Part shown: in pieces, positions 19,814 to 29,903 of the stretch
Numbering within the stretch: the stretch's first letter is position 1
How the letters are laid out: every line of letters begins with the position of its first letter
NCBI GenBank assembly: GCA_030680295.1
Contig: JAUXVU010000020.1
Span: 228,248 to 292,247, forward strand
Source: Moraxellaceae bacterium
Lineage (GTDB): Bacteria > Pseudomonadota > Gammaproteobacteria > Pseudomonadales > Moraxellaceae
Reading direction: 5' to 3'
DNA: 64,000 nt
Notes under the pieces: model-generated
Database searches by the model: none
What the model was told of the DNA's origin: nothing
The model's input: only the letters and a program-made list of their open reading frames with translations
Made by a program: the position numbers and the translations under genes

Positions 19814-19855
19814 CGTAAAACGTTTGAGCCTGATGATTGTCTTGAGCTGTTAGCC
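19814..19855 (-). repeat. attC-like site 1 (short, degenerate)
   Basis: On the minus strand GGCTAAC starts the site and a degenerate GTTTTAC ends it. The inner CTCAAG and GCTCAAACG boxes are kept. It follows the remnant of a GNAT cassette. Confidence 0.55.
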
Positions 19856-19963
19856 GTTCACAGAAATTTGCATTGATTAAAACTGTACACCACTTTTTAC
19901 ATGTGGCTCGCCTACTGGAACAAAGCAAATTGATGAGTTAACAGTGAAGCCTCCGGGACTCCG
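19851..19963 (-). pseudogene. remnant of a GNAT acetyltransferase cassette
   Basis: The segment repeats the last part of the acetyltransferase gene at 23133-23606 together with the beginning of its attC site. It shares CGTTCACAGAAATTTGCATTG-type blocks (compare 23137-23157) and TTGATGAGTTAACAGTGAAG (compare 23241-23260). About 17 bases are deleted between them and substitutions disrupt the frame. It is a decayed second copy of that cassette, cut off at about 19963. Confidence 0.75.
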
Positions 19964-20062
19964 AAGAAAAAAGCGCTTAAAGTCCTCCGGCTGCAGCCGC
20001 GGCCAATGTTTTTCGTCTGCATTTAGCGGAGGATATAAAGTCCAAGCTCAATTACCCCTCCA

Positions 20063-20593
20063 CTAATTCAGTGGAAGCTCTGCGAGTCGGTGTAATAGCA
20101 GCTCAATATTTTTCCGAATAGCGCCTTCGTTTGCTAGACGCAATCGCTTCACGGCAACGAATGAATCGCCGACCGTTGCAGTATGAGAACTGTTAATAGT
20201 TTGATTCATCAACTCTTGGCCGGAAGCTCTATTTTTCAATACATAGTTAACGTCAGCTCGAACCTTAAGGTCGATACCAAATAACGGTTGATCAAGCTTT
20301 ATTAATGAGGGGTGTAGAACGTATTTTGAGTTACTTGAGGAAAGCACACCGTTATTGGCCAAGGTGTCTTTTAGTGCAGTTTCAAACTCTTTAGAGCCTA
20401 CTTGAGATGTCCAGAGCGGATTTGTAGCTTTACCACCAGCGGCTGGAGCAACAGTAATACTGTCGGCCATTCGTACTTTAAGCGAGTCAATTGTTTTGGT
20501 GCTGGTCATACCCGCGACGGAAGCGCCACTTGCACATCCTTGTAGATAAAGCACAGAAACAAGCAAACCAACAATGGTTAATATTTTCTTCAT
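20063..20593 (-). CDS. lipoprotein, unknown function
   Basis: A 176-residue protein with a lipoprotein signal (MKKILTIVGLLVSVLYLQGC, lipid on Cys 20). The ATG at 20593 is chosen because it gives this signal; the frame is open 34 codons upstream with unrelated sequence. The mature part has alternating strand/helix pattern (IDLKVRADVNYVLKN, VGDSFVAVKRLRLANEGAIR). It resembles periplasmic lipoproteins such as those with DUF4410-like folds, but I cannot confirm this. No attC site was recognised on either side although it lies inside the array. Confidence 0.72.
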   Translation of the reverse strand: MKKILTIVGLLVSVLYLQGCASGASVAGMTSTKTIDSLKVRMADSITVAPAAGGKATNPLWTSQVGSKEFETALKDTLANNGVLSSSNSKYVLHPSLIKLDQPLFGIDLKVRADVNYVLKNRASGQELMNQTINSSHTATVGDSFVAVKRLRLANEGAIRKNIELLLHRLAELPLN

Positions 20594-20672
20594 GAGCAAA
20601 GTCCTTTTTGCAAAGTTAATATGAAACAAGTACGAGAATATCAATCGGCAAAATTTAAAGAAAGTGTATTTT

Positions 20673-20978
20673 TTATAAAGCAGGCTTCTTAGCAATTAAA
20701 ACATCTTGCTGCCATTTACTAGGCTCTTTGTCAGTGCGATGAATACACCCCGCCCAGCAACACGGCCGCTTCTTACCCTCAAGAAGCTCCTCAATCGTCC
20801 GGTTAATACGCTTAACTCGGGTCTTTTCTTGTTTTGCATCTTCAATCCAGCAAATAAACTCATTACGTGCGATGGGTGTTAGCTTTTCCCAAAGCTCAAC
20901 AGTCTCCAGCATTTGGCTTAAGGCCATGGCCAAGTCAGCAGGCATTTCATGTACAAGACCGCCGGAAATATTAGGCAT
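20673..20978 (-). CDS. YdeI/OmpD-associated-like C-terminal domain protein, copy 1
   Basis: A 101-residue protein starting MPNISGGLVHEMPADLAMAL. The core ARNEFICWIEDAKQEKTRVK and the cysteine pair in RPCCWAGCIHRTDK match the bacteriocin-protection YdeI/OmpD-associated family, whose biochemical role is unknown. The ATG at 20978 is chosen because the paralogue at 24866-25183 starts at the same point. The two copies differ in about a quarter of residues. It sits between attC-like site 2 and the lipoprotein gene. Confidence 0.82.
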   Translation of the reverse strand: MPNISGGLVHEMPADLAMALSQMLETVELWEKLTPIARNEFICWIEDAKQEKTRVKRINRTIEELLEGKKRPCCWAGCIHRTDKEPSKWQQDVLIAKKPAL

Positions 20979-21043
20979 AATTTTCAACCTACTCACTGCG
21001 TACTGCTAGAGCATTTGGACTTTCTTGGTATTGAATTGAGTTC

Positions 21044-21098
21044 GTTTAACATTCCAGTTCATAGCCGGCACGCAGTCCGCTGCAACCGGTAGTTATTC
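21044..21098 (-). repeat. attC-like site 2
   Basis: On the minus strand GAATAAC opens and GTTAAAC (a perfect GTTRRRY core) closes a 55-bp imperfect palindrome with inner boxes ACCGGTTGC and GCCGGCTATGAACTGG. The stop of the SRPBCC remnant (TAA, 21093-21095) lies in its first box. Confidence 0.65.
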
Positions 21099-21360
21099 TT
21101 CACATAAATCCTTAAAAAGCTGAAGCGCTTGAGGCCATGCGTTCATCATTTCTTCAAAAGCCTCATCCGTTAGTGGCACTTCCATATTCTGAGGACTGAC
21201 CATAGCAACATGCTTCATCTTGATAGCCTCATTAGGCACAACATGTTCGACTATGACCTTTGTGCCACCTTGGGTTTGGTCAAAAAATGAAATGTGTTGC
21301 CCTTCTTTCCACTCGCCTTCATAGGTCATACCCTCGTGATCCAGGTTGCCTAACATTACG
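21093..21360 (-). pseudogene. 5'-truncated SRPBCC/AHSA1-like cassette gene
   Basis: In frame from about 21360 to the stop at 21093 the product reads NLDHEGMTYEGEWKEGQHIS, FFDQTQGGTKVIVEHVVPNE and EEMMNAWPQALQLFKDLCEE, the second half of an SRPBCC (AHSA1-like) protein. The first half is missing and is replaced by the end of the methyltransferase gene in a different frame. A start at 21428 would give a hybrid without an N-terminal domain, so it is likely dead. Confidence 0.6.
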
Positions 21361-22179
21361 CATTTGTTCCCAAGTTTGCGCCATAAGCTTCTTGGTTGGT
21401 CCCCAACGGTAACCCCCCAGCGCACCACTCTGCTGTATAACCCGGTGGCAGGGAATCAGTAAAGCCACTGGATTTGCTCCAATGGCGTTACCAACCGCCC
21501 TTGCAGACTTTGGAGCACCGAGTGATTTGGCTACGTCGGCATAGCTGGCCACAGCGCCCGTTGGTATTTTCAGCAGAGCTCGCCACACAGCGATTTGAAA
21601 ATTGGTTCCTGCCACATGGAGCGATAACGGACCATGCTTGGAAGCCGTATCACTGCTAAAAAATGCATCAATAGCATGGCGCGTAGAGGGGAGGCTCTCC
21701 CTGATTGAACTGTGCGGCCAAGCGTTATGCAAGTTATCTAGCAACTCATCCATGCTGTTGAAGTCCATGAACTCTGCCCGGCAAACACCACGCTGGGTTA
21801 CCGCAACAAACATGGGTCCCAACGGGGTAGCGTGTACACCGTACTCGATATGAACCTGCTTACCTCGACTTTTATACTCGCCGGGTGTAACAGCTTCCAG
21901 CTGCACAAAGTGATCATGTAATCTTGAATTGCCGCTTAACCCAAGCTCATGTGAAACCTCGAGCAATGAACGCGAACTCTCCAGCAACACTTTGCCCCGC
22001 TCCAATGTCAGGACCTGTAAAAAGCGCTTCGGCGTAGTACCCGCCCATCGACAAAACAGCCTTTGAAAGTGGTACGGGCTCAGATGTACATGGGCGGCTA
22101 TCTCTTCAAGGCTGGGCTGATCAATTGCCCGATCAACCAAATAGGCCATAGCGCTTGCGATTCGGTCATAGTCTGACAT
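21319..22179 (-). CDS. AraC-domain plus methylated-DNA--cysteine S-methyltransferase
   Basis: A 286-residue fusion. Residues 1-105 form an AraC-type helix-turn-helix (LEEIAAHVHLSPYHFQRLFC). Residues 115-285 form an O6-alkylguanine-DNA alkyltransferase with FQIAVWRALLKIPTGAVASY, the helix-turn-helix RAVGNAIGANP and the acceptor LLIPCHRVI (Cys 244). It repairs O6-alkylguanine by suicidal transfer to this cysteine. The Ada zinc-type first domain is absent, so it is not a full Ada sensor. The last dozen residues, after about position 274, look foreign and lie over the SRPBCC remnant, so the original stop has probably been lost at a fusion point. It follows the SDR gene by 11 bases. Confidence 0.9.
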   Translation of the reverse strand: MSDYDRIASAMAYLVDRAIDQPSLEEIAAHVHLSPYHFQRLFCRWAGTTPKRFLQVLTLERGKVLLESSRSLLEVSHELGLSGNSRLHDHFVQLEAVTPGEYKSRGKQVHIEYGVHATPLGPMFVAVTQRGVCRAEFMDFNSMDELLDNLHNAWPHSSIRESLPSTRHAIDAFFSSDTASKHGPLSLHVAGTNFQIAVWRALLKIPTGAVASYADVAKSLGAPKSARAVGNAIGANPVALLIPCHRVIQQSGALGGYRWGPTKKLMAQTWEQMRNVRQPGSRGYDL

Positions 22180-22190
22180 GGCGCGGTCTC

Positions 22191-22958
22191 TCAGACACGA
22201 TTTATGGATACCCCGCCATCTACTAACATCGCAGAGCCAGTTGTGAAACTAGAGGCATCGGATGCTAAGTACAATGCGGATTGAGCAATTTCATCTGGTG
22301 TCGCCATACGCTTGAGAGCATGCAGGTTATGCACAAACGCCAATGCTTCTGGCGTATTTGCAAATTCACGTCCCGCTGGTGTATCAGTACCACCGGGCAA
22401 AAGGGCATTGACCCGGATATTCTGAGGCCCGTGCTCTGACGCCAGCACTTGAGTCAGTCCAATAAGGCCAGCCTTACTGGCTGCGTAGGCCGCCATGCCT
22501 GGCATGCCTGCTGTGTAGCCAACGAAGGTAGAGGTGAAAATTAACGAACCTCCTTTTCGGGCAGCCATGGCAGGCAGCTGGTACTTTGCGCCCAAAAATG
22601 CGCTGGTTAAGTTGGTCGCAATAACCTGATTCCAGTCCGCTTGCGACATCTCCGGGACAGGGCCCATAGCACCTAGGATAGCCGCATTGTTGAAAGCGAT
22701 ATCCAGTCCGCCAAAGTGGCTTACCGCTTTATCTACCAAAGCTTTGGCAAAAGCTTCTTCGCCAACATCACCGGCTAGTGCCACTGCCTGCCCGCCTTCC
22801 CTGTTGATTAAGTCCACAAGGTCATCAAGCTCCTTCTGTCGCCTTGCAGCCACAACGACGGCAGCACCTTCTCTTGCAAAAAGCTTCGCGGCGGCGAAGC
22901 CAATACCGGTGCTGGCGCCGGTAACAATAGCGACTTTGTTGGCAAGTCTGGCCATCAA
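22191..22958 (-). CDS. SDR family oxidoreductase
   Basis: A 255-residue classical short-chain dehydrogenase. The cofactor loop is VTGASTGIGFA (about residues 13-23), with basic AARR after strand 2 favouring NADP. NNAAILGAMGP is the NAG-type motif, and catalytic Ser and YAASK lie at about residues 143 and 157. The C-terminus MLVDGGVSI is typical. The substrate is unknown. A clear GGAGG site precedes the start. It forms a likely two-gene operon with the alkyltransferase, and no attC site separates the two. Confidence 0.92.
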   Translation of the reverse strand: MMARLANKVAIVTGASTGIGFAAAKLFAREGAAVVVAARRQKELDDLVDLINREGGQAVALAGDVGEEAFAKALVDKAVSHFGGLDIAFNNAAILGAMGPVPEMSQADWNQVIATNLTSAFLGAKYQLPAMAARKGGSLIFTSTFVGYTAGMPGMAAYAASKAGLIGLTQVLASEHGPQNIRVNALLPGGTDTPAGREFANTPEALAFVHNLHALKRMATPDEIAQSALYLASDASSFTTGSAMLVDGGVSINRV

Positions 22959-23067
22959 TCATTCCTCCTAGCTCTGTTCACTATAAAAGGGCATATGCCC
23001 GAACAGAAGCCATACTAGGAGGACAAACAACTACTGCCGACCCGAATCTTGCTGTATTTCAATTGCG

Positions 23068-23138
23068 CTATAACGTTTGAGTTAAGGGCGCGGCCCGTCC
23101 CAGTAAGCGAAGCGAGCGGTTTGAACCAGTTGTTAGCC
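23068..23138 (-). repeat. attC-like site 3
   Basis: 71 bp. On the minus strand it runs from GGCTAAC through TGGTTCAAACCG and CCCTTAACTCAAACG to GTTATAG. The TTCAAAC and TTAACTCAA boxes match the common attC inner boxes of chromosomal integrons. The stop of the acetyltransferase gene is in its first box. Confidence 0.82.
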
Positions 23139-23606
23139 GTTCGCAGAAATTTGCATTGGTTGAAACTGGACACCATTTTTTACCTGTGGCTCGCCTACTG
23201 GAACAAAGCCAAAAGCGGAGTACACAGGCACAGCAAAAATTGATGAGTTAACAGTGAAGCTTCCGGGATTCCCAAGATTTTCAGCTTCGGACTTCAGGAA
23301 CTGCCAAAGCTTTCTTCCGATGCCTAAACGATGAAAGTCTGGATTGACGAATAAGTGATAAATATGGGTGTTGTTACGAAGTGCTGCCACGCCAGCTAGC
23401 TTGCTGTTTATGAAGCAGAGAGCGTAGATGAAATCTGCACTGTTAATGTATTTAGAAATTGATTCTTGTGAGATGCTATTTATGAAGCCCTCAGCACCGC
23501 TCCCAGATGGATCTGAGAGGCAGTAGTGAGCAACGCTTTGAACTAACTCGGCGATAATTTCTGAGTCCGCTTCGCGGGCCAACTGGATTGCGAGATTTTT
23601 TGTCAT
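23133..23606 (-). CDS. GNAT family N-acetyltransferase (cassette gene)
   Basis: A 157-residue acetyltransferase. Acetyl-CoA motif A is LFVNPDFHRLGIGRKLWQFL (about residues 85-104), with the RLGIG loop, and the C-terminal AVPVYSAFGFVPVGEPQVKN is the usual end of the fold. The substrate is unknown. The stop lies in attC site 3 and attC site 4 ends three bases before the start codon, so this is a textbook single-gene cassette with almost no promoter space. A decayed second copy is at 19851-19963. Confidence 0.88.
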   Translation of the reverse strand: MTKNLAIQLAREADSEIIAELVQSVAHYCLSDPSGSGAEGFINSISQESISKYINSADFIYALCFINSKLAGVAALRNNTHIYHLFVNPDFHRLGIGRKLWQFLKSEAENLGNPGSFTVNSSIFAVPVYSAFGFVPVGEPQVKNGVQFQPMQISANG

Positions 23607-23608
23607 AG

Positions 23609-23706
23609 GGCTAACGCCTCAAACACCGGCTTGGTGAAGTTGGCGGCTTTTCTGGAACAAAAAAGGTGACCGCTTTACCAAGTCCGAGTGCTTTGACTTG
23701 TTATAC
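23609..23706 (-). repeat. attC-like site 4
   Basis: 98 bp. On the minus strand it opens with GTATAAC and closes with GTTAGCC; inner boxes AAGTCAAAGC and GTGTTTGAGGC and a long central stem support attC. The stop of the upstream cassette gene is in the first box. Confidence 0.78.
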
Positions 23707-24252
23707 GCTGACATTGGTCTCGACTCCCTTGCTCTTGATGGAGACTAAAAACTTGTACAGAGATTCATTATCAAATGCTTTTGCAGCGAAATCCAATTTG
23801 AAAGATTTACCTGCACTAGGAAAAAAAGTAAGCCTTGATGCTACTTGATCGTTTATAGCGCCATGCCCAGAAGACAGCATTTCCAAAGAATTGGCGTTTG
23901 CACCAATGTATATTTTTTGAATAGTGTTGATTGGGACTTCTTTATCAAGGGTGCGCCAGCCATCTATACCTTTTACTAGCAAGTTTTCACCTTCAACTGC
24001 TAGCCGATATGAGGACAGTGATTTAGTAAGCCATTTAAAGTAAAGAAATAAACAAAGGATAAGTAAAACTCCGCCTATGGGTAGGCCAATTTGCCTTGCA
24101 AGATCTTGCTCTATCCCTACGAAGTTGGTGAGCAGCCACATAATAAGACCGACGAAAATCATGCCATAAAATACAATTGCTACTAGAGCCAAGGGCAACC
24201 AGCCGACAAATGATTTTAAGATCTCTTTTTTGGTATTAACTCTGACTTCCAT
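23701..24252 (-). CDS. two-helix membrane protein, unknown function (cassette gene)
   Basis: A 183-residue protein with two membrane helices (about residues 16-40 and 52-72) followed by a beta-rich soluble part of about 110 residues that resembles a PH-like domain (YRLAVEGENLLVKGIDGWRT, then VPINTIQKIYIG). The ATG at 24252 is chosen because it lies just past attC site 5; the frame upstream only translates the attC site. No family is assigned. Membrane proteins with a cytoplasmic PH-like part are common among bacterial proteins of unknown role. Confidence 0.72.
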   Translation of the reverse strand: MEVRVNTKKEILKSFVGWLPLALVAIVFYGMIFVGLIMWLLTNFVGIEQDLARQIGLPIGGVLLILCLFLYFKWLTKSLSSYRLAVEGENLLVKGIDGWRTLDKEVPINTIQKIYIGANANSLEMLSSGHGAINDQVASRLTFFPSAGKSFKLDFAAKAFDNESLYKFLVSIKSKGVETNVSV

Positions 24253-24267
24253 GATTACTCTTTGTGC

Positions 24268-24323
24268 GTATAACGTTTCAATCAACCGACGCTTCAGCGG
24301 TCGGCTGCATTGTTTTGTTAGGA
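24268..24323 (-). repeat. attC-like site 5
   Basis: 56 bp. On the minus strand it runs from TCCTAAC through AAAACAATGCAGCCGAC and GTCGGTTGATTGAAAC to GTTATAC. The two inner boxes pair well, leaving a 7-base loop, so this is one of the best sites. Confidence 0.85.
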
Positions 24324-24760
24324 GTGCTTTCGCCGTATGTGCCCCAGCGGATGGTAAGTTTACAATCCCCCATGCCACCAATTTCAAGTAAATGCTCATT
24401 GGGCGATGGAGTGTGATGGAAAGCTACATCCAACCAATTAACCACATAGTACGACATGTTCACGAGCTTTCCTTGACTGGTCTCTATTGAAATATACTCG
24501 TCAACGAGATGACCGGTTTTGCAATAATGAAACTCCACAATTTCTCCCTGAATTTCCTTAAGAGCTGGTTCCCCCATTATTTTTAGTATTTCTTCTGTGG
24601 GCATTCCAGGCTGTATATCTGCTGCTTTACTCAAGTCGTTCTGAGTGTAATTGGAGAGATCGGCCAGCCTTTCTTCCTCGGGCCACAATATTGATATGAC
24701 CACAAGTGCCAAGACTGCATTAAGAACGTACGACCAATTACTTTTAAACCAAATTTTCAT
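24278..24760 (-). CDS. membrane-anchored BamE-like protein (cassette gene)
   Basis: A 160-residue protein with one N-terminal membrane helix (about residues 9-25) and a soluble domain. IQPGMPTEEILKIMGEPALK followed by a strand resembles the SmpA/BamE fold, which often sits in the periplasm. The ATG at 24760 lies just after attC site 6. The last dozen residues (NKTMQPTAEASVD) are encoded by attC site 5 itself, so the natural stop has been lost into the recombination site, a common feature of cassette genes. Function unknown. Confidence 0.72.
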   Translation of the reverse strand: MKIWFKSNWSYVLNAVLALVVISILWPEEERLADLSNYTQNDLSKAADIQPGMPTEEILKIMGEPALKEIQGEIVEFHYCKTGHLVDEYISIETSQGKLVNMSYYVVNWLDVAFHHTPSPNEHLLEIGGMGDCKLTIRWGTYGESTPNKTMQPTAEASVD

Positions 24761-24775
24761 TGAGTGACCCTTTAC

Positions 24776-24855
24776 TCCTAACGTCATGCTAAATGGCGCA
24801 GCCATGAGCCTTTGATGTGGAGACTATTGCGTCCATTTTGAGCGCTTTGTTATGT
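24776..24855 (-). repeat. attC-like site 6
   Basis: 80 bp. On the minus strand it opens with ACATAAC and closes with GTTAGGA, with inner boxes AAGCGCTCAAAATGG and CCATTTAGCATGAC. The downstream end lies 16 bases before the next start codon. Confidence 0.72.
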
Positions 24856-24865
24856 GTGTCCCTGT

Positions 24866-25183
24866 TCAATTCGCTATTGATTTTCTTTGCTTTTTTTCGA
24901 TTAAAACATTTTGCTGCCATTTGCCGGGCTTTTTATCAGTGCGATGAATGCAGCCCACCCAGCAACACGGCCGTTTCTTACCTTCAAGAAGCTCTTCAAC
25001 AGCCCGATTAATTCGTTTCACTCGGGTCTTCTCTTGTTTTGCATCTTCAATCCAGCAAATAAATTCATTACGAGCGATGGCCGTCAGACTCTCCCAGAGT
25101 TCAGTAGTTTCCTTTTTTTGTCTCAAAGCGCTGGCCAAATCAACTGGCGTTTCATGGACAAGACCACCGGAAATATTAGACAT
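24866..25183 (-). CDS. YdeI/OmpD-associated-like C-terminal domain protein, copy 2 (cassette gene)
   Basis: A 105-residue protein beginning MSNISGGLVHETPVDLASAL. It shares with copy 1 (20673-20978) the block ARNEFICWIEDAKQEKTRVK and the RPCCW-GCIHRTDK cysteine motif. The C-terminus has a longer basic tail (IEKKQRKSIAN). The ATG at 25183 follows a GTTGGAA stretch. The frame is open to 25264 near attC site 7, but the paralogue supports the shorter form. Family role unknown; E. coli YdeI-like proteins have been linked to resistance to antimicrobial peptides. Confidence 0.82.
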   Translation of the reverse strand: MSNISGGLVHETPVDLASALRQKKETTELWESLTAIARNEFICWIEDAKQEKTRVKRINRAVEELLEGKKRPCCWVGCIHRTDKKPGKWQQNVLIEKKQRKSIAN

Positions 25184-25255
25184 AAAATTCCAACCTACAA
25201 ATTGTATCCTGCCAGACAACTGTCCTGAATAAATCGATGACGGGTGGCTCGAAAC

Positions 25256-25333
25256 ACATAACATTGGGCAAAACCGGCTGGCTGGAGGCGGGCGAAGCCC
25301 ACTGAAAGCCAGTCCATGTTGATGGACTTATGA
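25256..25333 (-). repeat. attC-like site 7 (degenerate)
   Basis: 78 bp. On the minus strand it opens with TCATAAG (last base of the box altered) and closes with GTTATGT; a central GGGCTTCGCCC hairpin and flanking CTGGC and GCCAG boxes remain. Confidence 0.55.
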
Positions 25334-26047
25334 GCTCGGGCGTCCAATCCAGTAAAGATAACAAAACGCAAAAATTTGAATGGTAACCGATGCTTCATAA
25401 ACCAATAACCTATTCACGTGAGATAGCACCCATTTTGACAATATGGAGCTCGCCTTTAGTGCGACGAGAACGCTGTAAGCAAACGGGGTTACAAAAATCC
25501 AAATCAAGATGTAGTAAGCGCCGAAGAAAATAACAAATCCTAGGAACATCCACCACGCAGCCTCGATGCTGGATGTTGGTGCCAAACCAAACGGCTCAAA
25601 GAACGGATAGAACGCGCGCATGAGCCCAGCTTTTGGCTCTAGATAATCAAGGAACAGGATGCCCCAAGGCCAAAATAGAGACCAGCCAACCATAGGAACG
25701 AATGGTTGCAGTGCATCGCTGTGTTTAAAGCTCCAACGGAAAGAGAACCATGCAAGGAAACATATAAAGAAACCACTTGATGTCCAAAACATCAGCGCTT
25801 GAGATTTGGCGAAAACTGCAACAACAGTCAATAGCCCAGTAGCTATTGAAAGTTTCTTGAAGTGCGAAATCAGTACATCCAGTTCGGCGCGCACATCAGC
25901 ATTCGCACGCCATGTAAACGCTTTTAGAAGTCCAATTTCTGTCAGGCCGACTAATTTCTGCCAGCGTGGGGACTTCGCCACAATTCCCTCGTTGAACCAG
26001 AAGAAGGAAATGGCGCCAAGTATTACTACGAAATCGGCAAATCTCAT
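25328..26047 (-). CDS. polytopic membrane protein, unknown function (cassette gene)
   Basis: A 239-residue protein with about six hydrophobic segments (near residues 5-20, 68-85, 88-105, 118-132, 163-185 and 222-236). A soluble stretch of about 40 residues follows the first helix. No family is recognised. The start is ten bases past attC site 8 and the stop is in attC site 7, so it is a single-gene cassette. Confidence 0.7.
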   Translation of the reverse strand: MRFADFVVILGAISFFWFNEGIVAKSPRWQKLVGLTEIGLLKAFTWRANADVRAELDVLISHFKKLSIATGLLTVVAVFAKSQALMFWTSSGFFICFLAWFSFRWSFKHSDALQPFVPMVGWSLFWPWGILFLDYLEPKAGLMRAFYPFFEPFGLAPTSSIEAAWWMFLGFVIFFGAYYILIWIFVTPFAYSVLVALKASSILSKWVLSHVNRLLVYEASVTIQIFAFCYLYWIGRPSS

Positions 26048-26056
26048 ATTGATAAG

Positions 26057-26130
26057 AGCTAACGTCTGGTTAAGGGGCAGGCTTTAGCCCGTCCCGAGTG
26101 TACGCAGCGAACGGCTTGAACCACTAACTA
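26057..26130 (-). repeat. attC-like site 8
   Basis: About 74 bp. On the minus strand it contains GTGGTTCAAGCCG and CCCCTTAACCAGAC, which match site 3 closely, and ends GTTAGCT. The first box is altered (TAGTTAG in place of CTAAC). The stop of the next gene lies in it. Confidence 0.75.
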
Positions 26131-26940
26131 GTGGTTCTCACCGTCAGATGTGAATTCTATTTTTGGAGGTAGTTCGGACATGGCATAGTGGACGAATTGC
26201 TGCCCAAGCGCAGTTAATTCATAACCTTCATGTACATCGAATGCAGATACAAGGGGCTTAGGTCCGCTTCCTTGCGGCTTTCTGGCGGCTGGTTTTGCAA
26301 TGAAATTACCAAATCGATCTGTGTCTCTGTGCTGCCGTATTATGCCGCCGGTGCTTAAGTCGCGAAATAATAATTTATAAAGATCTGCGTCTGCTGAGTC
26401 TTCCCGCACTGTACCCTTTCCGATCTTTTCCCATATGCCGCAACGCGTTATTCCGGCGCTATTGTAAATGGCGCCAATTACTTGAAAATGCATCTCTGAA
26501 TATGTATTTATCCAGTCAATATACATTCTTACCACGTCATCGCTTGAGGCTGAAGTAGCGGCGGCATTTGACAGAATGTTCCTAATATAAATACGTTTTT
26601 CTTCACTTTCAGCGCCGGCCCACTCGCGGAATGTCTTTTTAACTAAAGATTGATATTCTTTACTTTCTATTCTTTTGGTGACTGTTTCATCTTGAAGGTC
26701 AAGCCTAGCCATTATCTCTATAATGGTTTCTTCTTTTTCTTTGAGTTCGTCTCGAAGCATTCGCACCCAATGCTCGAAAAAACGATTTACCTTTTCTTGC
26801 TCGCCTTCTGACCACGCGCCTGCAATAGCGGAAAATACTCCTCCTGCAAAAGGCACTGCACCTCCAATAGCTTGTAAGGCGCCACGTGAATATTTTGCGA
26901 TTTTTCCTTCTTTAGGAAGTTCAAGGCTGTCATCATCCAT
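26128..26940 (-). CDS. unknown cassette protein with hydrophobic segment and winged-helix-like tail
   Basis: A 270-residue protein. Residues about 22-45 (ALQAIGGAVPFAGGVFSAIA) are a glycine- and alanine-rich hydrophobic stretch. A long helical region follows (about 50-145, including EWAGAESEEKRIYIRNILSN). Residues 150-260 look like a winged-helix or DNA-binding module (FQVIGAIYNSAGITRCGIWE ... YELTALGQQFVHYAMSEL). I do not recognise a named family. The stop is in attC site 8 and the start lies 16 bases past attC site 9. A defence or regulatory role is possible but not shown. Confidence 0.72.
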   Translation of the reverse strand: MDDDSLELPKEGKIAKYSRGALQAIGGAVPFAGGVFSAIAGAWSEGEQEKVNRFFEHWVRMLRDELKEKEETIIEIMARLDLQDETVTKRIESKEYQSLVKKTFREWAGAESEEKRIYIRNILSNAAATSASSDDVVRMYIDWINTYSEMHFQVIGAIYNSAGITRCGIWEKIGKGTVREDSADADLYKLLFRDLSTGGIIRQHRDTDRFGNFIAKPAARKPQGSGPKPLVSAFDVHEGYELTALGQQFVHYAMSELPPKIEFTSDGENH

Positions 26941-26956
26941 GGCGTTCCCCTTATTG

Positions 26957-27016
26957 CTCTAACGTTCGCTTCAGGTGCGCGGAAAAGCCGCATCACTCTG
27001 TAAACGCTTGTTAGCC
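26957..27016 (-). repeat. attC-like site 9
   Basis: 60 bp. On the minus strand GGCTAACAAGCG opens and CGAACGTTAGAG closes, with a central GCGGCTTTTCCGC stem. It is among the clearest sites of the array. Confidence 0.85.
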
Positions 27017-27639
27017 ATGCCCACGGCACACCCATGCAGTGCATTTATTCGGACTGCCAATTTAGAGCTCCATTCTTTGCTAGGCAGGCTAGGCCGAGGG
27101 TATTTGAGTTGAGCCACGAAACCAAGTGCCTGATAAAAAGCTACATTACCGAGGTTTTTGCCGAATTTATCACGTAACCCATCAAGCCCAATAGAGCCGG
27201 AACCATAAAACGCAATTGCTAAGTAGGCAGATGCAATTCGACGCTTCGAGACTCTCCGCACGAGCATCAATGCAAGAATTTGCTCCCTCATTTTACGGGG
27301 GATTGTTCGTTCGTGACGGCCGGTTACAACGCGCACAAACTGCTGCTCGATGGTACTCGCACCCTGAATCTGACCCAGACTAATACGGACCCAAACAGCC
27401 CTAAACATTGCGATAACGTCGATCCCAGGATGAAGCTTGTTGCGATGATCCTCAGCGAGAATTACTGCATCAACAAAGGGATCTGGAACAGACTCTCCTA
27501 ACCGAGTTGTGAGTTCGAGACAATCTTCGAGATCCGCATGAAGGCTCGCAGATCCAAACCAACCTAAAATTATCGATATCAGGCTCATTGGAGTTGCAAG
27601 CACTATAAGGATGGTTTTCAAAACTCGTTCCGTTGCCAC
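26971..27639 (-). CDS. small GT51 peptidoglycan-glycosyltransferase-like protein (cassette gene)
   Basis: A 222-residue protein with one N-terminal membrane helix (about residues 7-29) and a glycosyltransferase-51 domain. The catalytic glutamate lies in AEDHRNKLHPGID (E63), the second motif is GASTIEQQFVRVV (93-105), and RKMREQILALMLVRR follows. There is no transpeptidase domain. Such monofunctional enzymes polymerise lipid II into glycan strands. The start is a GTG that overlaps the upstream gene by 22 bases; an ATG at 27588 would cut the membrane helix. The last residues (ANKRLQSDAAFPRT) are encoded by attC site 9. An integron-borne GT51 protein is unusual. Confidence 0.8.
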   Translation of the reverse strand: MATERVLKTILIVLATPMSLISIILGWFGSASLHADLEDCLELTTRLGESVPDPFVDAVILAEDHRNKLHPGIDVIAMFRAVWVRISLGQIQGASTIEQQFVRVVTGRHERTIPRKMREQILALMLVRRVSKRRIASAYLAIAFYGSGSIGLDGLRDKFGKNLGNVAFYQALGFVAQLKYPRPSLPSKEWSSKLAVRINALHGCAVGMANKRLQSDAAFPRT

Positions 27640-28124
27640 TTCACTTCGCCGTCTTGATTGGCAACCATCGAACTAAAGCTCCCCGCCATTTCGTCATCAG
27701 AATTAACAATTAGATCGTAGAAGTTGGTCGACTCACGACCATGACCGTCTTCGACAACATGGAGTACGACACGATCTTTCGAAAAATAGCTCTTCTGTAC
27801 AAACCCTTCGACAACACCTCTGGTACGATTCTCTGCTTCGTATTCTCTCTCACCAGTCGATGAATTCTCGTAAACTTTCTCGACAGTGCCTTCAATTCGA
27901 TTTCCCTCGCGCCAGAGCATTGCAACATATCTCAAAATCATACCTTTATATGGGTTATAGGCTGAGTTCACGGTGTGCATTTCAAAGAACCAACGCCCAG
28001 TGATTTGCGGTAGCGGGAAAACCTTCTCACGGATCCAGAAGAATAGAAAAGCCAGAATGCCGCCACCGATTACAGTCGCAAGCAGGCTATACAAAAAATT
28101 TAAAGCGAACAATTCTTTGGTCAT
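27618..28124 (-). CDS. membrane-anchored beta-rich protein (cassette gene)
   Basis: A 168-residue protein with one N-terminal membrane helix (about residues 8-31), a short basic linker, and a beta-rich domain that starts ITGRWFFEMHT (lipocalin-like GxW at 43-45) and continues with alternating strands to the C-terminus (RVVLHVVEDGHG, DEMAGSFSSMVANQDGEVKW). This layout resembles the membrane-plus-beta-barrel effectors of CBASS immunity (Cap15-like), but that is a structural guess. The ATG at 28124 is chosen after GGGAGGGGCGC. The gene overlaps the GT51 gene by 22 bases and no attC lies between them, so both belong to one cassette. Confidence 0.72.
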   Translation of the reverse strand: MTKELFALNFLYSLLATVIGGGILAFLFFWIREKVFPLPQITGRWFFEMHTVNSAYNPYKGMILRYVAMLWREGNRIEGTVEKVYENSSTGEREYEAENRTRGVVEGFVQKSYFSKDRVVLHVVEDGHGRESTNFYDLIVNSDDEMAGSFSSMVANQDGEVKWQRNEF

Positions 28125-28147
28125 GCGCCCCTCCCATTTACTGGTAC

Positions 28148-28225
28148 AGCTAACGTCGCACACTACGGCTTGAGCAACGTATGCATCCGGCACCTTCAGG
28201 CGCAAATTGATGCACCTTGTTAGTT
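28148..28225 (-). repeat. attC-like site 10
   Basis: 78 bp. On the minus strand it opens with AACTAAC and closes with GTTAGCT; inner boxes include GGTGCATCAATTTGCGCC and TTGCTCAAGCCG. The stop of the 28220 gene is in its first box. Confidence 0.75.
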
Positions 28226-28735
28226 ACGTAGTGCATCTTCGATTAAATCCCATCGCCCTTCGTATTCAGCGATATTCCAAAAATACGCCGCCGCCCCTTC
28301 CTCCACAGCAATAGCTCGTACCGAGCTGTCTTTTCGCTGTTGCCCTTTTTTTCCAAGTACTGAAAGCCACTCACGATGGCGAGCTGAAACGTTATCGGCC
28401 ATCTCTTTACTTGGTACTATGTAATAACGAAATGGAAACTCGGAGCCCGGCGTCGGGATTCCGCCGATAATCCAGAAAAAATTTGATCCGTAAGCTCGCT
28501 CGGCCTTCTTTCCCACGCTGCAAGTCTTATTCCCAGGAACAAATGTCTTTACCTGTATATGAACAAACTTTGTGCCATCACGGTTGCTGCAAAGCACATC
28601 AGTATTCGGCGTATTACCGAGTGTTACGACGGCAGCATAGCCGCGACGACACAGCTCCCCAGCGATAAAGAACTGGCTTGAATTGCCACGATAGCTTTTG
28701 TCTTTATCTGATAAGTTCACAAATACCTCATACAA
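28220..28735 (-). CDS. PD-(D/E)XK-like protein, possible nuclease (cassette gene)
   Basis: A 171-residue protein. The pattern E27 (AGELCRRGYAAVVTLG), D46 (GNTPNTDVLCSN) and Q61-x-K63 (HIQVKT) fits the E-D-(D/E/Q)XK core of the restriction-endonuclease-like fold, as in many small proteins of unknown role. The later part (SNFFWIIGG, FRYYIVPSKEMADNV) resembles the extension of DUF-type PD-(D/E)XK proteins that act on DNA. There is no methylase next to it. The stop lies in attC site 10, so it is a single-gene cassette. Nuclease activity is inferred from the pattern only. Confidence 0.7.
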   Translation of the reverse strand: MYEVFVNLSDKDKSYRGNSSQFFIAGELCRRGYAAVVTLGNTPNTDVLCSNRDGTKFVHIQVKTFVPGNKTCSVGKKAERAYGSNFFWIIGGIPTPGSEFPFRYYIVPSKEMADNVSARHREWLSVLGKKGQQRKDSSVRAIAVEEGAAAYFWNIAEYEGRWDLIEDALRN

Positions 28736-28792
28736 CTATCGTTCGAACTAAGCCGAACCACGAAGCGGAACGGCCCGAATGAGAAGCTAGAG
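28734..28792 (-). repeat. attC-like site 11 (degenerate)
   Basis: 59 bp. The inner boxes CATTCGGGCCGTTCC and GGTTCGGCTTAGTTCGAACG and a GCTTCG turn remain. The outer boxes are altered (CTCTAGC and GATAGTT), so it is probably inactive. Confidence 0.55.
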
Positions 28793-29209
28793 CACAGCAA
28801 GCGCAAAACGACCCACCATGAACCACAAAACAAGACTAGACACGAAATATGCAGTGAACCTGAAGTTCACGATATTAATCGTGCAATGAATAAGGCTGTG
28901 CAACGCTCGCAAGGAAACAAACGCCCATGCCGCATACAGATAAGTGGAATCAACACTGGCAGTGACAAAAAGTACAATACAGAGCGCGTAGAAAATAACA
29001 GGCAACTCAAACAAGTTTTTCAGATTGTTTGATGAGTTGTTGATATTGGCTGGAATGGCCGCATTAAGTAGCTCTGGTGTGGCGATGGACTGTGGGTTAA
29101 TGCCACTTTTTAATATGAACGGAAGACGCCGCGCATACATATAGGCCCACACAATTCCGGTGAGCAGAAACATGGTAACGACTGGTTGAAGAATGAGTTT
29201 TTGGTTCAT
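28787..29209 (-). CDS. MAPEG family membrane protein
   Basis: A 140-residue protein with four membrane helices and the MAPEG pattern: NSSNNLKNLFELPVIFYALC (about residues 57-76), where the NLFExP block binds glutathione-like ligands in the family, and AWAFVSLRALHSLIHCTIN (about 94-112). MAPEG proteins include membrane glutathione transferases. Its stop is in attC-like site 11, which makes it the last gene that can be tied to the array. It starts 29 bases after the preceding gene. Confidence 0.88.
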   Translation of the reverse strand: MNQKLILQPVVTMFLLTGIVWAYMYARRLPFILKSGINPQSIATPELLNAAIPANINNSSNNLKNLFELPVIFYALCIVLFVTASVDSTYLYAAWAFVSLRALHSLIHCTINIVNFRFTAYFVSSLVLWFMVGRFALAVL

Positions 29210-29237
29210 CGAAATTCCTTTTCCGGTAATTTAACGC

Positions 29238-29558
29238 TTATTTAGCATCGCTAGACTTTTCCACTTCTAGGTACTGAATAGTGAGCGGCCAAAATAATGA
29301 ATAAATCCATAAGCCTAATGATATTGCCACGCCCAAAACAACCGTGCCAAACAATGCAAAAAATACACCCATGAACTGACCAAGAACTATGGCTTTTGCC
29401 CCTGTCACGGGCTGACTATTCCAGCTCATATTGACCAAATCGACTGATGCAAGTAGGCCAAGAATAGTAAAAATAGGGACAAGACCAAAAATCAGGCCTT
29501 TGGCTATAAGTGAAAACACAGTGGCAATGTGGAGTCTTTTGATTTCGACTTTACTCAT
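29238..29558 (-). CDS. two- to three-helix membrane protein, unknown function
   Basis: A 106-residue protein with a short charged start, two or three membrane helices (about residues 16-42 and 62-92), and a charged C-terminal tail (EVEKSSDAK). It lies between the MAPEG gene and the DUF4236 gene, all on the minus strand with 28- and 42-base gaps. The family is not recognised. Confidence 0.68.
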   Translation of the reverse strand: MSKVEIKRLHIATVFSLIAKGLIFGLVPIFTILGLLASVDLVNMSWNSQPVTGAKAIVLGQFMGVFFALFGTVVLGVAISLGLWIYSLFWPLTIQYLEVEKSSDAK

Positions 29559-29600
29559 AAACTCTTCCTAAGTTTTTGTAGCTCCAACACCAGCAGCAAA

Positions 29601-29903
29601 CTAACTAAATATTGCAATAAGAACAATAACAATAATAAAACCAATAAAAAGTTGAAGCCCAGTTCCTTGCTCGACTGATGGGGTGCTAGTTTCCACTCCG
29701 CTACCTTTACTCTTACTCGAAAGCTTGTGAGTGCTAGACAGGCCAGTACCAGGCAGGCTGCTTGTAAGTTGTGTACCCTTTTTACCGCCGGCATTCACAG
29801 TAATGCCTTTGCCACCCAGTGAAACACTTGATACTCCCTTTGATGTGACATTGAGCTTAATGCCGGGAGCAATTTTTATCCTTTTCCTAAATTTTATTGC
29901 CAT
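29601..29903 (-). CDS. DUF4236 domain protein with C-terminal membrane helix
   Basis: A 100-residue protein. The N-terminal RKRIKIAPGIKLNVTSKGVS and SVSLGGKGITVNAGGKKGTQ are the DUF4236 signature, a small beta domain of unknown function found in many phage- and plasmid-rich regions. A serine-rich linker and a C-terminal hydrophobic helix (about residues 82-99) follow. A GGGGGAAG stretch precedes the ATG. No attC site was found at either end. Confidence 0.88.
   Translation of the reverse strand: MAIKFRKRIKIAPGIKLNVTSKGVSSVSLGGKGITVNAGGKKGTQLTSSLPGTGLSSTHKLSSKSKGSGVETSTPSVEQGTGLQLFIGFIIVIVLIAIFS

What the first reader, a model, noticed from the sequence alone, without database searches (positions are those of the whole stretch)
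19814..28792. Integron-type cassette array with no integrase in the window (CALIN-like)
Seen: eleven imperfect palindromes with GTTRRRY / RYYYAAC outer boxes and pairable inner boxes lie between minus-strand genes, and many stop codons fall within the first box. Several sites (3, 5, 9) are close to the classical form. Known: these are the features of attC sites of gene cassettes. Inference: this is a chromosomal cassette cluster that has lost, or lies far from, its integrase; the orientation puts the missing attI/intI side near 29-30 kb.
Basis: partly seen in the sequence, partly recalled or inferred. Interest (0 to 1): 0.78.

Follow-up and report, generated by a model that had tools for sequence, protein, structure and literature searches.

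The report
Stranded integron gene-cassette row (CALIN)
This stretch of a bacterial chromosome is a row of small gene cassettes with no intact integron integrase gene found in its assembled genome; the cassettes were likely put there by an integrase that the lineage has likely since lost, which makes it a known and fairly ordinary kind of element (a CALIN).

Summary
The finding holds. A covariance model built from 37 attC sites of other genomes, none from the window, hits the window at E<1 in eight places, all on the minus strand between 23.0 and 28.2 kb: five strong (E<0.001), three weak. The other three of the claimed eleven are doubtful or decayed. In four consecutive cassettes the attC's R'' box is a 7/7 complement of the start of the same cassette, as expected of units that were once circles. 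The 2.60-Mb, 99%-complete assembly has no integron integrase over the family cut-off. So this is a CALIN, a known kind. Outside the window the same genome has integrase-less cassette clusters on C3 and at two places on C36, and on C6 one cassette with its attC facing a 78-codon stretch that resembles the C-terminal end of IntI. A relative in the same genus, G001, keeps an intact intI beside a 12-site array. How the window cluster came to lie apart from an integrase (off-target insertion, deletion or rearrangement) stays open. The organism is close to Perlucidibaca/Paraperlucidibaca.

The parts
28735..28792 (-). S1: decayed attC; R'' core AAC reads AGC, R' core GTT reads GAT
   Evidence: best local alignment to own C3 attC 24.6, 100 shuffles mean 15.4, max 19.8; no R1 match at E<=10
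28220..28735 (-). 171-aa ORF, cassette gene between S1 and S2
   Evidence: no Pfam match; stop codon in R'' of S2
28148..28225 (-). S2: attC, weak
   Evidence: R1 18.8 bits, E 0.043
26971..28205 (-). two overlapping ORFs between S2 and S3: 195 aa (27618-28205) and 222 aa with a transglycosylase match (26971-27639)
26957..27016 (-). S3: attC
   Evidence: R1 33.1 bits, E 1.5e-5; 6/7 with its cassette's start
26128..26940 (-). 270-aa ORF, cassette gene
   Evidence: no Pfam match
26057..26133 (-). S4: attC, weak, R'' core mutated
   Evidence: R1 19.1 bits, E 0.036; 78-88% identical to attC stretches of G152, G299 and G001
25328..26047 (-). 239-aa ORF, cassette gene
   Evidence: no Pfam match
25256..25333 (-). 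S5: attC, weakest, R'' core mutated
   Evidence: R1 14.5 bits, E 0.46
24866..25264 (-). OmdA-family cassette gene, first copy
   Evidence: PF13376 E 1.2e-17
24776..24855 (-). S6: attC
   Evidence: R1 43.6 bits, E 4.7e-8; 7/7 with its cassette's start
24278..24805 (-). 175-aa ORF, cassette gene
   Evidence: no Pfam match
24268..24323 (-). S7: attC
   Evidence: R1 39.6 bits, E 4.2e-7; 7/7
23701..24399 (-). 232-aa ORF as listed from its first start codon; cassette gene
   Evidence: no Pfam match
23609..23706 (-). S8: attC, best site
   Evidence: R1 48.8 bits, E 2.5e-9; 94% identical over 97 bp to an attC of G191 (that site is one of the 37 in the model); 7/7
23133..23606 (-). GNAT acetyltransferase cassette gene
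   Evidence: PF13673 E 3.2e-34
23068..23138 (-). S9: attC
   Evidence: R1 26.1 bits, E 7.6e-4; 7/7; about 80% identical to stretches beside intI in G152 and G299
21093..22958 (-). short-chain dehydrogenase (22191-22958), AraC/Ada-type methyltransferase (21319-22179) and 111-aa ORF (21093-21428)
   Evidence: no attC supported between them
21044..21098 (-). S10: attC candidate at background level
   Evidence: R1 9.6 bits, E 7; stop codon in R''; 5/7
20063..20996 (-). second OmdA-family gene (20673-20996) and 210-aa ORF (20063-20695)
   Evidence: PF13376 E 1e-18; OmdA copies 82% identical over 99 aa
19815..19967 (-). relic of a duplicated GNAT cassette end (19845-19967) with a truncated attC-like end (19815-19855)
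   Evidence: 75% identical to 23128-23277; attC part not above shuffles

Best explanation
The minus strand of window 23.0-28.2 kb is a row of attC recombination sites with small genes between them and no intact integron integrase gene in the assembled genome, that is a CALIN, whose cassettes were likely inserted by an integron integrase that this lineage has likely since lost. Shown: the attC sites, their common orientation, the cassette unit (R'' box complementary to the start of the same cassette) and the absence of an integrase over the family cut-off in the assembly. Inferred: IntI joined circular cassettes by attC recombination on the folded bottom strand; a likely former integrase is the one whose probable C-terminal stump lies on contig C6, facing a single cassette with a well-scoring attC. 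Predicted: S6-S9 are still substrates, so these cassettes would move if an integrase were supplied in trans, while S1, S4 and S5, with mutated core triplets, would not. How the window cluster came to lie away from an integrase is not resolved; off-target insertion by an IntI elsewhere in the genome is my first choice by a small margin, because four clusters show no trace of an integrase beside them.
For: Model from other genomes' attC sites: 8 matches at E<1, all minus strand, 23.0-28.2 kb. BLAST: 23611-23707 is 94% identical over 97 bp to an attC of G191; 26058-26123 and 23067-23143 match stretches close to intI in G299 and G152 at 78-85%. R'' against own cassette start: 7/7 for 4 of 8 window pairs (permutation p about 0.001) and 9 of 19 pairs over four own clusters, against 0 of 19 for the next site's box; 100,000 shuffles, mean 1.16, at most 7. 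Stop codon within R'' at 6 of 9 sites. TIGR02249 over cut-off: 0 of 1 own genome. C6 stump: 101 bits on profile positions 237-313, best NCBIfam match integron integrase (105 bits; next generic tyrosine recombinase 85, XerC 83), with an attC of 54 bits about 0.8 kb away on the other strand.
Against: Three of the eight sites are weak (E 0.036 to 0.46), and the model contains a close relative of S8 (from G191), so S8's score and its BLAST match are not independent. Two home-made scans showed no clear excess and single-strand folding is mixed. The assembly is in 44 contigs at 99.02% completeness, so an intI in a gap is not excluded. The C6 stump is too short to prove IntI identity. No empty site was found in relatives, so loss of the integrase is inferred.
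Confidence: 0.86

Rival explanations
1. Piece of the host's former chromosomal integron: the window cluster once lay next to an intI, perhaps the one now reduced to a stump on C6, and was carried off by a chromosomal rearrangement or left behind when the head was deleted.
For: Gene order breaks at the cluster: thiG and trmB are 1.7-2.4 kb apart in G017, G001 and G040 and 7.3 kb in G029, but 79.7 kb here, with the cluster against trmB. A decayed site and a cassette relic at the two ends fit a fragment that is rotting.
Against: No IntI-like stretch beside the window, C3 or C36 clusters in the stretches examined; two window segments have copies beside the C36 cluster, which points to duplication or repeated insertion rather than a single cut.
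Confidence: 0.4
2. Assembly artefact: an intact intI exists in an unassembled gap and the genome holds a complete integron.
For: 44 contigs, 99.02% complete; contig C3 begins inside its cassette row.
Against: The window cluster lies inside contig C4 with other genes on both sides, and on C3 the side where an intI would be expected lies inside the contig without an IntI match.
Confidence: 0.06
3. Chance palindromes or an unrelated repeat family between genes.
For: Weak home-made scans; mixed folding.
Against: Eight same-strand matches in one stretch at E<1 and none elsewhere in the window; the 7/7 cassette-end match; close matches to attC sites beside intI in other genomes.
Confidence: 0.02

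Closest known systems
[quoted passage not shown] IntegronFinder 2.0, PMC9024848, passages read)
   Same: Two or more attC sites in a row, one orientation, no integrase gene beside them; 8 supported sites against a reported mean of almost 6 per CALIN.
   Different: Nothing in kind. The genome has three further clusters and a probable intI stump elsewhere.
   Same: Same genus by the tool's grouping; similar attC types (82-88% over 67-74 bp); cassettes with matching ends.
   Different: G001 has an intI over the cut-off (466 bits) beside 12 attC sites, and 11 of 11 pairs are 7/7.
CALINs and inactivated intI of Xanthomonas (PMC12444791, abstract and passages read)
   Same: Cassette clusters away from the intI locus; intI inactivated in several lineages.
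   Different: There CALINs sit at conserved loci across species and intI at ilvD; here no shared locus was found.
attC sites without intI in Treponema phagedenis (PMC3607928, abstract and passages read)
   Same: attC sites remain while intI seems lost.
   Different: Here a probable part of an intI is still seen, on another contig.

Membership tests
CALIN | at least two attC sites by a covariance model | tested here: met
   8 at E<1, 5 at E<0.001, with a model of my own, not that of IntegronFinder
CALIN | no integron integrase near the attC cluster | tested here: met
   no IntI match in the window better than E 2.8; none over cut-off in the assembly
CALIN | attC sites in one orientation | tested here: met
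   10 of 10 matches at E<=10 on the minus strand
Integron gene cassette | one unit from R' core to the next R' core, R'' complementary to the unit's own start | tested here: met
   7/7 in 4 of 8 window pairs, 3 to 6 of 7 in the other four
Integron gene cassette | recombined by an integron integrase | not testable with these tools
   needs an assay
Complete integron | intI over the family cut-off | tested here: not met
   0 of 1 own genome
Complete integron | attI site and cassette promoter at the head | not tested
   GTT-containing boxes near 29232 and 29958 seen by eye only
Sedentary chromosomal integron as counted in PMC11023631 (complete integron or CALIN with at least 11 attC) | at least 11 attC sites | tested here: not met
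   8 at E<1, 10 at E<=10 including one inside a gene
IntI (C6 stump) | TIGR02249 over its cut-off of 265 bits | tested here: not met
   101 bits, 105 bits; only positions 237-313 of 315, so called probable

The most novel reading that the evidence does not exclude
The genome is a fossil of cassette scattering: an integrase, now cut down to a stump on C6 that still faces its last cassette, planted cassette rows at four chromosomal places (the window, C3 and two on C36), and many of these cassettes are still in mobile form, waiting for an integrase in trans. The match between a cassette's two ends would then tell which rows are still alive.
Probability: 0.25. Interest if true: 0.5.

Novelty: new member of a known kind. 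Interest (0 to 1): 0.32.

Why it matters
CALINs are about as numerous as complete integrons in a large survey (2961 against 2760; PMC9024848, passage), and three origins have been proposed for them (PMC8618304, passage). A genus in which one genome keeps intI with its array, and another has a probable intI stump plus several separate rows, would let those origins be told apart with a few more strains. The cassette-end match is a simple check that a suspected row is made of cassettes.

Tried and rejected
Home-made attC scan that demanded R''/R' pairing within a site: 1 site in the array at the lowest threshold, shuffles 1.3 on average; set aside because in an array R' belongs to the next cassette. 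Looser scan: 5 sites on the minus and 4 on the plus strand of 18-31 kb at the lowest threshold, and near-symmetrical results in other loci; used only to harvest attC candidates from other genomes, from which I chose 37 by eye.

Rfam: no match in the window at gathering scores. No tRNA or tmRNA gene in the window. PADLOC on ten window ORFs: no match at E<=0.01.

Erosion of the cassette-end match in integrase-less rows: with all sites, 9 of 17 own pairs against 89 of 113 pairs from loci fetched beside intI; own and other genus clusters pooled, 15 of 26, Fisher p 0.04. But window sites had been taken at E<=10, the others at 0.01. At equal threshold it is 8 of 12 against 89 of 113, p 0.46. No erosion is claimed. 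Pairs more than 2 kb apart were dropped; of the 24 loci searched, 14 gave pairs. In one search one C3 site (286-346, boxes cut) and one G001 C6 site were left out; G001 C6 is 2 of 6 there and 3 of 6.

Empty-site search: the trmB and proS neighbourhoods of relatives gave no joined flanks. A search of named genomes with the DUF6670 protein found no relative. The roughly 80 kb between thiG and trmB looked like ordinary chromosomal genes by eye (not run against families), so a mobile island was not pursued.
Full report
Observation. The minus strand of 19.8-28.8 kb reads as small genes with imperfect palindromes between them. To test this without circularity I looked for integron integrases in relatives: 12 of 99 genomes of the family have a TIGR02249 match at E<=1e-40 (11 of 99 over the cut-off), and 117 of 293 of the order at E<=1e-100. 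From stretches beside such genes I picked 37 attC sites, by a scan and then by eye, aligned them, read the paired columns off the alignment and built model R1. No window sequence went into it.

Result in the window. With filters off R1 gives 10 matches at E<=10, all on the minus strand; 8 have E<1 and 5 have E<0.001. BLAST agrees: window 23611-23707 is 94% identical over 97 bp to an attC of G191, and two further sites match stretches close to intI in G299 and G152 at 78-85%. The G191 site is one of the 37 in the model, so these two results are not independent for S8. At six of nine sites a gene's stop codon lies in R''. Results that do not help: two home-made scans and single-strand folding, z from -3.78 to +1.02 over nine sites.

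Cassette unit. By established knowledge of integrons (recalled), a cassette that was once a circle has the other half of its own attC at its start, so R'' of a site should complement the R' box of the previous site. In the window this is 7/7 for the four consecutive cassettes that end at S6, S7, S8 and S9, 6/7 for S3, and 4, 3 and 5 of 7 for S4, S5 and S10 (permutation p 0.0008 to 0.0013). Over four own clusters 9 of 19 pairs are 7/7 and none of 19 for the next site's box; 100,000 shuffles reached at most 7. In loci fetched beside intI it is 89 of 113, in the G001 array 11 of 11. At equal detection threshold own clusters (8 of 12) do not differ from those loci.

Integrase. The assembly (2,602,093 bases, 44 contigs, 99.02% complete) has 12 TIGR02249 matches, none over the cut-off; the best has 101 bits over profile positions 237-313 only, at C6:472524-472757. 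Against NCBIfam this 85-aa stretch scores best with integron integrase (105 bits), then a generic tyrosine recombinase (85), XerC (83) and XerD (82); in BLAST, IntI genes of relatives give up to 87 bits and own Xer-like genes up to 64. On the opposite strand lie a 186-aa ORF and an attC of 54 bits at C6:471702-471779. That attC and a GTT box at L009 4359-4365, taken by eye as the start of its cassette, match 7/7. I read this as a beheaded integron: no further IntI similarity lies between the stump and the cassette. It is a probable, not a proven, IntI.

Rest of the genome. R1 finds 18 sites at E<=1 in the whole genome: C3 seven, C4 (the window) five, C36 five at two places about 37 kb apart, C6 one. 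Searching the fetched stretches, where E-values are laxer, gives C3 eight, C36 two and five, C6 one, each at E<1, plus one 14-base match at E 5.9. tblastn with the IntI of G001 finds nothing at E<=0.01 in the window or in the 19-20 kb stretches around the C3 and C36 clusters. C3 begins inside its row, so its far end is cut off. In the genus, 6 of 7 genomes have attC matches at E<=0.05 and 2 of 7 an intI at E<=1e-40 (G001, G049); G049 has no attC match at that threshold.

Surroundings. thiG and trmB lie 1.7-2.4 kb apart in G017, G001 and G040, 7.3 kb in G029, and 79.7 kb apart here, with the row against trmB. Of six other genus genomes, one has a 38% relative of the gene at 18.7-19.7 kb (E<=1e-20) and none a relative of the gene at 16.2-17.9 kb at E<=1e-60. 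Two window stretches have copies beside the first C36 cluster: 20060-20675 at 84% and 21360-22202 at 76%; a 62% relative of the 210-aa protein lies beside attC matches in G017. Two OmdA genes in the window are paralogues and 19845-19967 is a relic of the GNAT cassette end. So cassettes here have been duplicated, and the clearest decay is at the two ends of the row.

Organism. NCBI places the two genera in Pseudomonadales (Perlucidibacaceae) and Moraxellales (Moraxellaceae). A search for papers with Perlucidibaca and integron listed three, with one mention of each word (listing only).

Mechanism. Shown: attC sites, orientation, cassette units, no intact intI in the assembly. Inferred: assembly by IntI, loss of IntI, present immobility. 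Predicted: S6-S9 would still recombine. A review names three origins for CALINs: off-target insertion, loss of intI, rearrangement (PMC8618304, passage). I cannot decide; clusters without integrase traces lean slightly to off-target insertion, the break in gene order at trmB to rearrangement. That the bottom strand of attC recombines as a hairpin with extrahelical bases is from PMC2727003 (abstract and passages). The paper on attG insertion sites (Loot 2024) I saw only as a reference and as cited in PMC12444791.

Known or new. CALINs are a standard class (PMC9024848, passages); clusters away from the intI locus and inactivated intI are reported in Xanthomonas (PMC12444791, abstract and passages), and attC without intI in Treponema phagedenis (PMC3607928). 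This is a new member of a known kind. The interest is modest and rests on the genus, where intact, stump-bearing and integrase-less states occur side by side.

Noticed in passing
L009:3703-4776 (own contig C6:471702-472775): One cassette (186-aa ORF) with a 54-bit attC facing a 78-codon stretch like the C-terminal end of an integron integrase: a probable beheaded integron.
   Followed up: partly
L114:286-14390 (own contig C3): Eight attC matches in a row; ORFs between them include defence-like proteins: PHP plus ATPase (PADLOC Ppl, E 1.7e-25), two TIR-domain proteins, an FRG-domain protein (PDC-S15, E 3.4e-39) and a short DarT-like match.
   Followed up: partly
L115:2457-10260 (own contig C36): Second cluster with two attC matches; copies of the window's Ada-type gene and 210-aa gene lie upstream, and by eye a GTTATAGC box and a shared short stretch precede both Ada copies.
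   Followed up: partly
window 22962-23030: Strong hairpin upstream of the short-chain dehydrogenase gene, z -4.83, not attC-like by alignment; perhaps a regulatory site.
   Followed up: no
window 28787-29903: MAPEG, 106-aa and DUF4236 ORFs between the first decayed attC and trmB; GTT boxes at about 29232 and 29958 suggest they may be cassettes too, with no attC supported.
   Followed up: no
own contig C4:178.7 kb to 258.4 kb (window 30.2 kb): About 80 kb of other genes separate thiG from trmB, which are 1.7-7.3 kb apart in four relatives.
   Followed up: partly
L117 (own contig C33, 3075 bases) and L009:11175-16095: C33 holds three tyrosine-recombinase-like reading frames in a row; by eye, large recombinase-like ORFs also lie in a row in L009.
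   Followed up: no
L116:14605-16188 (own contig C36): A 527-aa ORF that by eye looks like a reverse transcriptase lies about 3.5 kb beyond the last attC match of that cluster.
   Followed up: no
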